Shown: positions 6,092 to 42,528 of the stretch, piece by piece | Numbering within the stretch: position 1 is the stretch's first letter | How the letters are laid out: each line of letters starts with the position of its first letter | From: a virus | IMG/VR virus record: IMGVR_UViG_3300005541_000007 | Coordinates: 1 to 64,000 of that record | Direction: 5' to 3' (one strand) | DNA: 64,000 nucleotides | The notes under the pieces: model-generated | Told to the model about the DNA's origin: nothing | Databases searched by the model: none | The model's input: only the letters and a program-made list of their open reading frames with translations | Made by a program: the position numbers and the translations under genes

Positions 6092-7885
6092 GTGGTAAAT
6101 ATGGGTAAACTTGTAAATATGAGTTACGGCTGGATTAAACAAAAAGATGATTTTAGAGATTTTAAATATAGTGCTGAAAAGCCGGTTGATTTAACTAAGC
6201 CTGTTGATTTAACTTCTAGTATGCCACCTGTATGGGATCAAGGAGTTTATAACGATTGTGTTGCTCATGGTGTGGGTTGTGCTTTATGGGTTGCTTTAAA
6301 AGATGAAAATAAGATTTTTAACATGCCTAGCAGAATGTTTATTTATTATCAGGCAAGGAAATTGGAAAATTGTTTAAACCAGGATGCGGGTTGTGAAATT
6401 AGAGACGCTATTAAATCGGTAGTTAGTTTAGGTTGTCCCGAAGAAAAGGATTGGGATTATAGTATTGGGCATTTAGATATGGATGCTCCTACTAGTGTTT
6501 ACGCTGAAGCTAGTTTACATAAGGTATTGGTTTATAGAGCGGTAGCACAATCATTGAATGATATTGTTACTGCTTTAACTGAAGGATTTCCTGTTGTGTT
6601 TGGGTTTTTAGTTGATCCGTATTTTGAAACAAGTGAAATGGCAACTGAAGGACTTTTGAAGTATCCAGTAAACGCTTACAACACTAGATGGTGCGGAGGG
6701 CATTGTCTAGGTGGAAATACAAAAATTTCATTACTTGATGGTAGAGAATTATCTATATTAAATATTATAGATGAATTTAATGATAAAGAATTTTGGGTTT
6801 ATAGTTGTGATAATAAAGGAAATATAGTCCCTGGAAGGGCACATTCTGCACAAAAAATGGGAACTAAACAAGTATTAAAAATAACTTTAGATAATGAAGA
6901 AATTATTGAATGTACAGAAGAACATAGGTTTCTTTTGCGGGACGGTACATATGTGGAAGCAAAATTTTTAAAAGAAAACGATAGTTTAATGCCACTATAT
7001 AGAAAAAAATCTACTAGAAAACAAATGACGGGTTATGATATGTGTCTTAATAATAGAACTAATTCTTATTCTTACACACATAGAATAGTTGCTAAAGATA
7101 TTAATGGAACTTTGCATGGTTTTGTTGTACATCATAAAGATTTTAATAAACTTAATAATAATCCTAATAATTTACAACTCATGACGTCTGAGGATCATAT
7201 TAAATTACATTATACAGAAGTATGTAAATTAATAGAATATGTTAAAAGTGAAAAAGGTAGAGCAACGAGTAAGAAAAATATGGAAACCTTATGGGCTGAT
7301 CCCGTATGGGCAGAAAAAATGCTAGAACAATTAAAAATTAATACAACAAAAGGTGCAGATAAATTACGAGAAAAATACGCTAATGGGGAAGTTCAAGGAT
7401 TTTTAGCATTGGATGCAAATTTATTATTTGAAATACGAAGTAAAAATGGAAAGAAAAATTGTGTATCTATGCATACACCAGAAGTAATTGCTAAACGAAC
7501 CGAAACAACAAAAAATAAATTTATAGAAGATGAAGAGTATCGTGAAAAGAAACGAGCAATAGCTATTGCTAATATACAAAAATATAATGAAAAGAAAAAA
7601 CTAGAAAAACAATATAACCATAAGATTCAAAAAATTGAACTCGGAGATATACAAGATGTATATGATATTACTGTAGATAAACATCATAATTTTGCTTTAA
7701 CTGCGGGTGTATTTGTACATAATTGCGTAAATATTGTGGGTTATAATCCTGTGGACAGTACATTTATTTGTAGAAATAGTTGGGGAGATAAATGGGGATT
7801 AAATGGTTATTATCGGCAAAGCATTAATTATATACTAGACCCAAAAATTTCATCAGATTTTTGGGTAATTGAGTCTGTAAATTAA
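6092..7885 (+). CDS. Papain-like (C1) cysteine protease interrupted by an intein
   Basis: The host protein is a C1A-type protease. Gln50 and Cys56 lie in WDQGVYNDCVAHG, the catalytic His204 is in CGGH directly before the intein, and the catalytic Asn562 is in CRNSWGDKWG. The N-terminus (YGWIKQKDDFRDFKYS) matches pro-less papain-like proteins found in bacteria and phages. Residues 205-544 are an intein (own entry), so the mature protease would be about 257 residues. The start is uncertain: GTG 6092, ATG 6101 or ATG 6119 are in frame with no clear Shine-Dalgarno. It stands alone between two minus-strand groups. The target is unknown; virion maturation, host protein cleavage or lysis are possible. 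Confidence 0.85.
   Translation: MVNMGKLVNMSYGWIKQKDDFRDFKYSAEKPVDLTKPVDLTSSMPPVWDQGVYNDCVAHGVGCALWVALKDENKIFNMPSRMFIYYQARKLENCLNQDAGCEIRDAIKSVVSLGCPEEKDWDYSIGHLDMDAPTSVYAEASLHKVLVYRAVAQSLNDIVTALTEGFPVVFGFLVDPYFETSEMATEGLLKYPVNAYNTRWCGGHCLGGNTKISLLDGRELSILNIIDEFNDKEFWVYSCDNKGNIVPGRAHSAQKMGTKQVLKITLDNEEIIECTEEHRFLLRDGTYVEAKFLKENDSLMPLYRKKSTRKQMTGYDMCLNNRTNSYSYTHRIVAKDINGTLHGFVVHHKDFNKLNNNPNNLQLMTSEDHIKLHYTEVCKLIEYVKSEKGRATSKKNMETLWADPVWAEKMLEQLKINTTKGADKLREKYANGEVQGFLALDANLLFEIRSKNGKKNCVSMHTPEVIAKRTETTKNKFIEDEEYREKKRAIAIANIQKYNEKKKLEKQYNHKIQKIELGDIQDVYDITVDKHHNFALTAGVFVHNCVNIVGYNPVDSTFICRNSWGDKWGLNGYYRQSINYILDPKISSDFWVIESVN
6704..7723 (+). mobile_element. HNH-containing intein (340 residues)
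   Basis: The intein starts at Cys205 (CLGGNTKISLLDGRELSI, splicing block A) and has a block-B-like motif (CTEEHRFLLRDG). It ends with VYDITVDKHHNFALTAGVFV followed by His-Asn, then Cys545 as the +1 extein residue. Between the splicing blocks lies an HNH homing endonuclease (VHHKDFNKLNNNPNNLQLM...EDHIKLH) followed by a Lys-rich helical region. The insertion lies exactly after the protease's catalytic His, a conserved site typical for inteins. All residues needed for splicing (Cys1, block B His, terminal His-Asn, +1 Cys) are present, so it looks active. Confidence 0.9.
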
Positions 7886-40033: not shown

Positions 40034-40963
40034 TTGAGCGATACACTCAAAGGATATGCGTCTGCAACACAAGTAGCTAATTTTATGGGGATAGTCCCAA
40101 ATACAGCTAACTTAGCGCAAATAACAACATATCTTGGAGTAGCAGAAGAATTAGTAGAAAATTATTGTCAAACAACTTTCTTACAAGAAATTGGCGGTAA
40201 TACTTCCGATCTAGCATCAACTCAAGCTTCTGGTTGGTTAGTAGTAACATCAGCAACTTATACATTTCAACCAACAGATGTAGGACAATTTATTCGTATT
40301 GTATCAGGAACTAATTTTACTCCTGGGGTATATTTAATTGCTTCTGTAGCAGGAGGAAATGCAACACTTTCAACTGCGTGTGGAACTACTGGAAATGCAT
40401 CATCCGGTACATGGCATGAAAGTGTAAATAAGATTTTTAGTGGACATGGAAATACTACAATTTTCCCAGGTTTATATATTCAAGATGTACTTGCTATGAA
40501 TCTTCTTGATATTGATGGAGTATCAGTAATCTATACTTATATTATGAATACTGATATAACACTTAAACCAGATACACCATTAAAGATTGCAAGTACACCA
40601 GTTTATAGATGGATTGAAAGAAAATATTATAGCGGTGGAAGTTTTGGACAACAAGGCGGCGATCAATCAGGAGTAACACCGTATTCTGTAACTCCTATCT
40701 TTATTCAAGGTTCGCAAAATATTCAAGTATTTGGAGTGTGGGGATTACCACAAATTCCTGATACCATTGTTTACGCCATATGCGCCACTGTACAGAATAT
40801 GTTTAGGGCCATAGGAATTAATCCATTTATTAAATCAGAGGGCGCATACGGGCGTTCTGTGGTCTTTAATGATACAAATGATTTTGAAATGATTCCTCCA
40901 ATGGCTCAAAGACTCTTGGACCCTTGGGTGAACAAAGCGATCTTCAACACCGATGGATTTTAA
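40034..40963 (+). CDS. Head-tail connector with inserted beta module (309 aa)
   Basis: TTG 40034 follows GGAG by six bases. The N-terminus (TTYLGVAEELVENYCQTTFL, residues 31-50) and the continuation HGNTTIFPGLYIQDVLAMNLLDIDG match gp6-like head-tail adaptors (connector 1 fold), which join the portal to the tail. Residues about 56-129 are an inserted beta-sandwich module (DLASTQASG...ACGTTGNASSGTW) that also occurs in the tail tube, hub and 58274 proteins. The adaptor is thus interrupted in frame by a surface module and stays full length on both sides. Confidence 0.7.
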   Translation: MSDTLKGYASATQVANFMGIVPNTANLAQITTYLGVAEELVENYCQTTFLQEIGGNTSDLASTQASGWLVVTSATYTFQPTDVGQFIRIVSGTNFTPGVYLIASVAGGNATLSTACGTTGNASSGTWHESVNKIFSGHGNTTIFPGLYIQDVLAMNLLDIDGVSVIYTYIMNTDITLKPDTPLKIASTPVYRWIERKYYSGGSFGQQGGDQSGVTPYSVTPIFIQGSQNIQVFGVWGLPQIPDTIVYAICATVQNMFRAIGINPFIKSEGAYGRSVVFNDTNDFEMIPPMAQRLLDPWVNKAIFNTDGF

Positions 40964-40965
40964 AA

Positions 40966-41007
40966 ATGTCTGCTACACCTATTTTAACTTCATCAGGTTG
41001 GTTTTAG
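40966..41007 (+). pseudogene. 13-codon remnant resembling the start of the 42097 gene
   Basis: ATG 40966 opens MSATPILTSSGWF and stops at TAG 41005-41007, two bases before the tnpB start. The gene after tnpB begins MITPLLSTSSSWFENV. The match (TP-L-TSS-WF) and similar codons imply a duplicated 5' end flanking tnpB. This is the relic of an insertion or recombination event. Confidence 0.55.
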
Positions 41008-41008
41008 T

Positions 41009-42097
41009 ATGATTAATTATCAACTTAAATTAAAACTTACTAAATATCAGGAACAACAATTAGAATCCTGGTTACCAATACTTACCTCTATTTGGAATTG
41101 GACTATAAGAAAAATTGAATTAGATGCTAAAGATAATATATATTATAATAGTAAATTTGATTTTGTAAATTTATTAGTAAATCATAGTGAAAAATTAGGA
41201 GTATCTAGTCATACTATGATGTGTACTACTATGACTGCATATAATTTATACCAACAATATATAAAGAAAAAATGTGGTAAACCTAAATTTAAAGGACAAA
41301 GAAATAAACTTAATAGTATTCTATTTCCAGATATTATTAAACAACCACAAAATAATAAAATACAATTACGAGTAATAGGTAAAATTAAGTATCATAAACA
41401 ACAAATACCTGAAGGTAATATTAAATGTGTAAGAATTATTAAAAAAGTAAGTGGTTGGTATGCAGTATTAACTATAGATACTAAACCTAAAAAAATATCT
41501 ATTATTAGTAATAATAAAGTAGGAATTGACCCAGGATTTAAACATTTACTTACACTATCTAATGGTGATAAAATTGAACATCCTCGTGAATTTGAAATTA
41601 ATGCGGAACGATTAGCACAAGCACAACGCGGGCATAATAAGAAACTTGCTGCTATAATTAATGAAAAAATTGCTAATCAACGAAAAAACAGAAATCACAA
41701 ACTCTCTAGAAAATTAGTAAGTGAAAATGAATTAATAGTTTTTAGTAAAGATAATCATAAAAATGTTGCTAAAAAATTTGGTAAATCTGTGTCCTCTTCA
41801 GGACATTATCAACTTCAAAAAATGTTAGAATACAAGTGTCGTACAGACGGTAGGCAATACATAGAAGTTGATTGTAAGTTTTCCACCATGACCTGCTCTA
41901 CCTGTAATGCTCGTACCGGGCCTACAGGTTGGGAAGGCTTGAAGGTAAGGAATTGGGAGTGTACAGAGTGTGGAACTTTACATGATAGAGACATAAATGC
42001 CGCTATCAATACGCTTAATTCCGGGCTTGGAATAAGCCACGAGAATACCGTGAAAACGGAAATACAGAAAACTAGTAATGAATGGGGTAATATTTAA
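41009..42097 (+). CDS. tnpB: TnpB-family RNA-guided nuclease-like protein (362 aa)
   Basis: TnpB/OrfB of IS200/IS605-type elements: RuvC-I Asp174 in VGIDPG, an arginine/lysine-rich bridge region (KIANQRKNRNHKLSRKL), a zinc ribbon CSTC...CTEC (Cys296-321) and RuvC-III Asp328 in HDRDINAA. The usual RuvC-II Glu (xxEDL) is replaced by LIVFSKDNHK (Ser246). Glu286 in YIEVD might substitute, as in TnpB clades with rearranged active sites, or the protein may be nuclease-dead. No TnpA lies nearby. The stop overlaps the next ATG by one base. The last ~100 bases are GC-richer with small hairpins, where an omegaRNA scaffold would be expected. Confidence 0.88.
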   Translation: MINYQLKLKLTKYQEQQLESWLPILTSIWNWTIRKIELDAKDNIYYNSKFDFVNLLVNHSEKLGVSSHTMMCTTMTAYNLYQQYIKKKCGKPKFKGQRNKLNSILFPDIIKQPQNNKIQLRVIGKIKYHKQQIPEGNIKCVRIIKKVSGWYAVLTIDTKPKKISIISNNKVGIDPGFKHLLTLSNGDKIEHPREFEINAERLAQAQRGHNKKLAAIINEKIANQRKNRNHKLSRKLVSENELIVFSKDNHKNVAKKFGKSVSSSGHYQLQKMLEYKCRTDGRQYIEVDCKFSTMTCSTCNARTGPTGWEGLKVRNWECTECGTLHDRDINAAINTLNSGLGISHENTVKTEIQKTSNEWGNI

Positions 42098-42528
42098 TGA
42101 TTACACCACTATTATCAACTAGTAGTTCATGGTTTGAAAATGTCACTTTTAATGTAATAGATTTAGTGTACCAAGTTTTAGATATGCACAGTGTTCCGAG
42201 TAATACAGTTGTATACTCAGGGTTAGTAGGACATTTACAAAATGCACAATTTAGTAAAGAAGGGCAAGCAGATAAAGAAAGAAATAGAACTTCACCGTGG
42301 ATATTAACAGTAACTACTCAATATGATTTACAAATGGGACAATTTATAGTAATTACAAGTGTTAAGAATGCTTATGGTATGTGGATTGCTAGTACCCAAC
42401 CTTACGAACAATTCAAAGTAGATTTCCTCAACGCGTCATTTAGTAATTCAAACGAGAAAATTCTTAGATTATCGCGTAGGGATGCTGTGGCGAATACTAG
42501 TAACACTGCTGATGGAGTAATAAATTAA
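42097..42528 (+). CDS. Head completion/tail-joining type protein (143 aa)
   Basis: ATG 42097 shares a base with the tnpB stop. The N-terminus is similar to the 13-codon remnant before tnpB. The middle (TSPWILTVTTQYDLQMGQFI) is beta-rich. Its order (after the connector, before a gp10-like protein) suits a second connector or head-closure protein. No family signature is clear. It overlaps the next start by one base. Confidence 0.6.
   Translation: MITPLLSTSSSWFENVTFNVIDLVYQVLDMHSVPSNTVVYSGLVGHLQNAQFSKEGQADKERNRTSPWILTVTTQYDLQMGQFIVITSVKNAYGMWIASTQPYEQFKVDFLNASFSNSNEKILRLSRRDAVANTSNTADGVIN

What the first reader, a model, noticed from the sequence alone, without database searches (positions are those of the whole stretch)
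41009..42097. TnpB inside the head-tail operon with a missing canonical RuvC-II Glu
The ORF keeps RuvC-I Asp174, the zinc ribbon and RuvC-III Asp328, but the xxEDL motif reads FSKDN (Ser246). Either Glu286 (YIEVD) has taken over, as in TnpB clades with rearranged catalytic sites, or the protein is a nuclease-dead regulator like TldR. It is fused into the operon by a one-base stop/start overlap and has no TnpA, implying retention for a phage purpose.
Basis: partly seen in the sequence, partly recalled or inferred. Interest (0 to 1): 0.75.

Follow-up and report, generated by a model that had tools for sequence, protein, structure and literature searches.

The report
Phage TnpB with rebuilt active site
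A phage carries, inside its head-tail gene cluster, a TnpB protein (the RNA-guided DNA cutter from which CRISPR-Cas12 evolved) of a virus-associated branch that lost the usual catalytic glutamate and instead has an invariant aspartate two residues further on, so it probably still cuts DNA and may help the insertion spread between phages.

Summary
Window 41009-42097 encodes a full TnpB (362 aa): RuvC-I D174, zinc ribbon and D328 are present and the canonical Glu is Ser246. It overlaps the next gene by one base; the 80-kb record has no TnpA.

Both offered interpretations are weak. Glu286 is not the known relocated Glu (E_alt); that column is Cys289 here. Glu286 is also absent from 9 of 44 clade members. 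I found a virus-derived clade of 44 non-redundant proteins, the window's included (37-60% identity to it). None has Glu at either known position. All 44 have Asp248, two residues after the canonical Glu; 42/44 keep D174 and all that cover it keep D328. The clade is monophyletic, sister to E_alt TnpBs. Many members carry an omegaRNA with covarying stem and pseudoknot, some an intact Y1 TnpA next door; dN/dS is about 0.1. An active D-D-D nuclease is likelier than a dead regulator, but unproven.

The window copy lost its left end and sits in the duplicated 5' end of the next gene (MSATPILTSSGWF* upstream, MITPLLSTSSSWF downstream), so its guide would come from that gene, as in RNA-guided homing.

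Known kind, new variant; Altae-Tran 2023, which reported rearranged sites, could not be read.

The parts
41009..42097 (+). tnpB, 362 aa
41528..41530 (+). RuvC-I Asp174 (DPG motif)
   Evidence: 42/44 of clade
41744..41746 (+). Ser246 at the canonical RuvC-II Glu position
   Evidence: alignment to ISDra2; S/T/L/N in the clade
41750..41752 (+). Asp248, proposed replacement RuvC-II acid
   Evidence: 44/44 in the clade, Leu/Val/Ile in outgroups
41864..41866 (+).
   Evidence: 35/44 (its count of 36 includes outgroup L237)
41873..41875 (+). Cys289 at the E_alt position
   Evidence: PMC10711439
41894..41971 (+). zinc ribbon (C296, C299, C318, C321)
   Evidence: invariant in the clade
41990..41992 (+). 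RuvC-III Asp328
   Evidence: 43/43 of clade members that cover it
42024..42038 (+). omegaRNA stem a (GGCTT-GGAAT-AAGCC) inside the coding 3' end
   Evidence: covarying stem in relatives; paired in the window
42039..42130 (+). likely rest of the omegaRNA scaffold; right end unresolved (42097, 42118 or 42129), guide begins after it
40966..41007 (+). remnant start of the interrupted gene, MSATPILTSSGWF*
42097..42528 (+). restored head-tail gene, starts MITPLLSTSSSWFENV, overlaps tnpB stop by one base
40034..40963 (+). head-tail adaptor gene upstream
   Evidence: phrog_442 E=4e-13

Best explanation
It is an RNA-guided TnpB nuclease of a virus-associated clade in which the third RuvC acid moved from the canonical Glu (position 246) to Asp248, giving a D174-D248-D328 site. 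The 3' end of its own mRNA folds into the omegaRNA, with a stem-loop whose loop forms a pseudoknot with the right end; the guide is whatever follows, here the first codons of a head-tail gene. The element sits in the 5' end of that gene, which was restored by a second copy of its start fused to the tnpB stop. Mechanism: TnpB cuts TnpB-free copies of this gene in co-infecting relatives and repair copies the insertion across (RNA-guided homing). Shown: the site residues and their conservation, the clade, the omegaRNA fold in relatives, mobility of relatives, the duplicated gene start. Inferred: that Asp248 is catalytic, that the window copy cuts DNA, the guide boundary, and homing.
For: Asp248 in 44/44 clade proteins; D328 in 43/43 that cover it; D174 in 42/44; no Glu at 246 or 289. 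At 248 outgroups have Leu (14/14 E_can) or Val/Leu/Ile (16/16 E_alt). Clade monophyletic (SH-aLRT 100), sister to E_alt (99), catalytic columns left out of the tree (quick tree). omegaRNA in relatives: stem a 5/5 pairs covary, pseudoknot 99% of cells paired, at the ISDra2 pseudoknot position (PMC10097598). Mobility: L200 and L201 are 94.6% identical over 1,179 bp ending exactly at the right end, with different flanks; intact Y1 TnpA beside L193, L195, L198, L211. dN/dS 0.08-0.16 for diverged pairs. Window copy: stem a paired; third-position GC jumps from 24/266 to 37/96 codons over the omegaRNA end (p=5e-10). Duplicated gene start; a weaker parallel in L191. TnpB as a gene drive is documented for plasmids (PMC11870625).
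Against: E219 is also invariant in the clade and is an unexcluded alternative. Two members (L226, L236) lost D174 yet keep D248, so its conservation need not mean catalysis. Cas12m has an Asp-containing non-canonical triad that binds without cleaving (PMC10442227). The window copy has no left end and its terminal hairpin and right end are unclear. No TnpB-free allele was found.
Confidence: 0.5

Rival explanations
1. Nuclease-dead or binding-only protein (TldR- or Cas12m-like): it binds an omegaRNA and blocks transcription or replication of a target, perhaps its own operon or a relative's, without cutting.
For: Both known Glu positions lost; no TnpA or left end in the window copy; two clade members lost D174 yet remain under purifying selection; Asp-containing triads can be cleavage-dead.
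Against: D174, D328 and zinc ribbon conserved; clade-wide gain of Asp248; relatives are mobile IS200/IS605 elements with TnpA, where TnpB nuclease is what is expected to be selected.
Confidence: 0.25
2. Glu286 has taken over the catalytic role.
For: Present in 35 of 44 clade members; lies in the strand before the E_alt position.
Against: Absent in 9 members, among them L044, L224 and L229 with intact right-end hairpins; frequent in enzymes that already have E_can or E_alt; three residues away from the E_alt column.
Confidence: 0.07
3. A decaying, stranded insertion without function: the IS lost its ends and is tolerated because the interrupted gene was restored.
For: No left end, unclear right end, no TnpA.
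Against: Intact 362-codon frame with every clade-conserved acid (D174, E219, D248, D328) and zinc ligand kept at 40-60% divergence; elevated GC confined to the RNA end.
Confidence: 0.15

Closest known systems
E_alt TnpBs (e.g. Acinetobacter phage HFM1, Salmonella phage LPSTLL, Pseudomonas plasmid copies)
   Same: Closest relatives outside the clade (about 30% full length, 41% over 216 aa to HFM1); same zinc ribbon (GPxGxxGL..HDRDxN) and homologous RNA end (model R1 hits L002 and L008 at E 9e-10 and 8e-12; much of this is coding similarity).
   Different: They carry a Glu seven residues before the first zinc-ribbon Cys; this clade has Ser/Cys there and Asp248 instead.
ISDra2 TnpB (canonical E_can, IS200/IS605)
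   Same: Fold (TM 0.75), RuvC-I/III Asp, zinc ribbon, omegaRNA with pseudoknot between an upstream loop and the UUC near its 3' end (PMC10097598).
   Different: Canonical Glu is Ser246 here; Asp248 in place of Leu; no TnpA or left end in the window copy.
Pro-Fanzors and Fanzors
   Same: DPG motif at RuvC-I and loss of the canonical Glu.
   Different: They have E_alt; pro-Fanzors go with IS607 TnpA (PMC10711439); this clade has no E_alt and an IS200-type Y1 TnpA.
TldR (TnpB-like nuclease-dead repressor)
   Same: Phage-encoded TnpB relative without a canonical triad (PMC13418256).
   Different: Catalytic Asp kept and a new invariant Asp gained; head-tail context instead of a flagellin gene; repression untested.
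Cas12m
   Same: Non-canonical RuvC triad (PMC10442227).
   Different: CRISPR effector with REC2 insertion and an HDD triad; here D-D-D in a minimal TnpB.

Membership tests
TnpB (IS200/IS605 type) | TnpB fold, RuvC-I/III Asp and zinc ribbon | tested here: met
TnpB (IS200/IS605 type) | Canonical RuvC-II Glu (E_can) | tested here: not met
   Ser246; S/T/L/N in all 44
TnpB (IS200/IS605 type) | omegaRNA overlapping the 3' end with pseudoknot to the right end | tested here: inconclusive
   Clear in relatives; in the window stem a is intact, the 3' end is unresolved
TnpB (IS200/IS605 type) | Element ends and Y1 TnpA | tested here: not met
   No TnpA in the record, no left-end hairpin; both met in relatives
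E_alt TnpB | Glu seven residues before the first zinc-ribbon Cys | tested here: not met
   Cys289; S/C/P/N in the clade
pro-Fanzor | DPG plus E_alt | tested here: not met
   DPG yes, E_alt no
TldR | RuvC inactivated | tested here: inconclusive
   Glu lost but D174/D328 kept and Asp248 gained
TldR | RNA-guided repression without cleavage | not testable with these tools
   needs bench assays
RNA-guided homing element | Guide matches the uninterrupted allele of the gene it sits in | tested here: inconclusive
   TnpB-free alleles were sought and none found; only the duplicated gene start supports it

The most novel reading that the evidence does not exclude
A third arrangement of the TnpB catalytic site (D-D-D, third acid two residues past the canonical Glu) founded a virus-associated branch of IS200/IS605 elements, some of which became RNA-guided homing genes that sit in the 5' end of phage genes, restore that gene's start and take their guide from it.
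Probability: 0.3. Interest if true: 0.75.

Novelty: new variant of a known kind. Interest (0 to 1): 0.57.

Why it matters
RuvC enzymes of the TnpB lineage were described (PMC10711439) with the RuvC-II Glu in one of two places. A clade that lost both and gained an invariant Asp, while relatives remain mobile with intact guide RNA and transposase, suggests the site can be rebuilt once more and gives a direct mutational test of what the RuvC-II acid must be. If active, these are very small RNA-guided nucleases from phages; if inactive, they are natural DNA binders. The gene-restoring insertion would be an RNA-guided counterpart of phage homing endonucleases.

Tried and rejected
Single-protein scan of viral contigs with P0001 found nothing; the clade appeared only with an alignment query. 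Model coordinates were not in the Python box, so active-site distances could not be measured. Plain alifold found only stem a; the terminal hairpin and pseudoknot were added by hand, so their counts lean on my choice of columns. The search for TnpB-free alleles through neighbouring genes gave nothing; the head-protein relative L028 (78%) ends before the site. Dropped: a sequencing error explaining the missing Glu (the whole clade lacks it); Glu286 as E_alt (wrong column). Right end at 42118, as placed by the covariance model, conflicts with the pseudoknot rule; 42129 satisfies the rule but its spacing (99 nt) is outside the clade's 61-90; 42097 fits spacing and, with a G-U pair, the pseudoknot but lacks a clear hairpin: left open. 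Rfam has no match to this RNA. Altae-Tran et al. 2023 (PNAS), which as I recall reports rearranged TnpB sites, and the first TldR paper are not held, so whether this branch was noted there is unknown.

Full report
What is there. The ORF at 41009-42097 is a full-length TnpB. AlphaFold2 gives a confident model (mean pLDDT 92.9, pTM 0.85) whose best solved match is ISDra2 TnpB (8h1j, TM 0.75). D174, D328 and the zinc ribbon are intact and the canonical Glu is Ser246. It lies between a head-tail adaptor (40034-40963) and an uncharacterised gene (42097-42528), downstream of portal, head maturation protease and major head genes. The record is an 80,385-base virus contig with a single TnpB and no Y1 TnpA.

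Where the Glu went. The literature at hand describes two places for the RuvC-II Glu: canonical (E_can) and alternative (E_alt, pattern ExxxxxxCxxC), in a study drawing on over 140,000 homologues (PMC10711439). The closest phage and plasmid relatives are E_alt proteins with Gly at E_can and Glu at the column that is Cys289 here. Glu286 lies three residues upstream of that column.

A separate clade. Alignment-based scans of viral contigs gave, with the window's own, 44 non-redundant proteins, 37-60% identical to it. In all of them E_can is Ser, Thr, Leu or Asn and E_alt is Ser, Cys, Pro or Asn. Asp248 is present in 44/44, D174 in 42 (Gln in L226 and L236), D328 in all 43 that cover it. Glu286 is present in 35 (one search prints 36 because its count includes L237, an E_alt outgroup). 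At position 248 the E_can rows have Leu (14/14) and the E_alt rows Val, Leu or Ile (16/16); E219 is the only other acid gained throughout the clade. The scan patterns did not include these columns. With columns 245-249 and 285-290 left out, the tree puts the clade on one branch (SH-aLRT 100), sister to E_alt (99), apart from E_can; this is the quick tree, as the careful search did not finish. Searches of 50,697 phage and 72,556 plasmid records with clade proteins found no close member in the rows listed; one plasmid record fell in the 60-80% identity band and was not inspected.

Relatives are mobile elements with guide RNA. Many clade members end in GGAATCCCC-loop-GGGGAGGTTCAA or a variant, followed by unrelated sequence. 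L200 and L201 are 94.6% identical over 1,179 bp that stop exactly at that end, with different flanks; left ends show a similar hairpin. Intact Y1 transposases sit directly upstream in L193, L195, L198 and L211. The RNA alignment supports a stem in the coding 3' end (5/5 pairs change on both sides) and a pseudoknot from its loop to the right end (99% of cells paired), far above shuffled and slid controls; this is the ISDra2 pseudoknot position. dN/dS for diverged pairs is 0.08-0.16. These points favour selection for a working nuclease.

The window copy. Stem a is fully paired (GGCTT-GGAAT-AAGCC). Third-position GC rises from 24/266 codons to 37/96 over the RNA end, in a phage whose other genes have 0.15-0.23; other AT-rich members show the same trend, so RNA constraint is the simplest reading, though recombination could do it too. 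The model R1 hit (76.4 bits) is largely coding similarity. The 3' end is open: 42097, 42118 and 42129 each satisfy some criteria; a hairpin-plus-TCA test gave 26/3000 shuffles and 19/1043 other windows, post hoc. Under all three the guide is taken from the first codons of the downstream gene.

The interrupted gene. Upstream of tnpB, 40966-41007 encodes MSATPILTSSGWF*; the downstream gene begins MITPLLSTSSSWFENV. The match scores 41, the next best of 719 ATG starts 20, and 10 of 100,000 shuffles reach it; without the shared WF the shuffle figure is 1,355 of 100,000. The tnpB therefore sits in the duplicated 5' end of that gene, and the one-base overlap is where the gene was restarted. L191/L192 shows a weaker parallel (ATG AAA GTA CTA upstream, ATG TCC AAA GTT TTA downstream, TGATG overlap). 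Insertion followed by recombination with a diverged copy would explain both; no empty site was found.

Reading. The most likely mechanism is RNA-guided cutting by a D-D-D site and spread by homing, with the catalytic role of Asp248 and the homing both inferred. A binding-only protein remains possible because non-canonical triads can bind without cutting (Cas12m) and because L226/L236 keep D248 after losing D174. Rearranged TnpB sites are, as I recall, already reported as a class (Altae-Tran et al. 2023, text not available here), so this is filed as a new variant, with the possibility that the branch was seen before.

Noticed in passing
L226 6001-7107 and L236 2-640: Two phage contigs share a colinear tnpB of this clade (between a terminase-like gene and a P22-type portal gene in L226) in which RuvC-I D174 is Gln; dN/dS of the shared tail is 0.12, so it looks like a retained, possibly nuclease-dead derivative.
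   Followed up: partly
L191 5976-5987 and 7077-8123: Second case of a clade tnpB at the start of a gene (calcineurin-like phosphoesterase): remnant ATGAAAGTACTA upstream, restarted gene overlapping the tnpB stop as TGATG.
   Followed up: partly
window 41009-42097: Third-position GC is 9% in codons 1-266 and 39% in codons 267-362 of the same gene (p=5e-10).
   Followed up: partly
L213, L214, L217: Near-identical tnpB copies whose flanks are mixed: L214 has the left flank of L213 and the right flank of L217, either recombination at the element or a chimeric assembly.
   Followed up: no
window 41528-41536 and clade: The DPG motif at RuvC-I, described with E_alt as a Fanzor/pro-Fanzor fingerprint, occurs in most of this phage clade (Pro at 175 in 28 of 34 rows) without E_alt.
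   Followed up: no
window 6092-7885: 597-aa protein with an HNH endonuclease region (phrog_7545 E=4e-11).
   Followed up: no
L020 2986-4077 (Salmonella phage LPSTLL): An E_alt TnpB is annotated as 'putative head morphogenesis protein' in the GenBank record.
   Followed up: no
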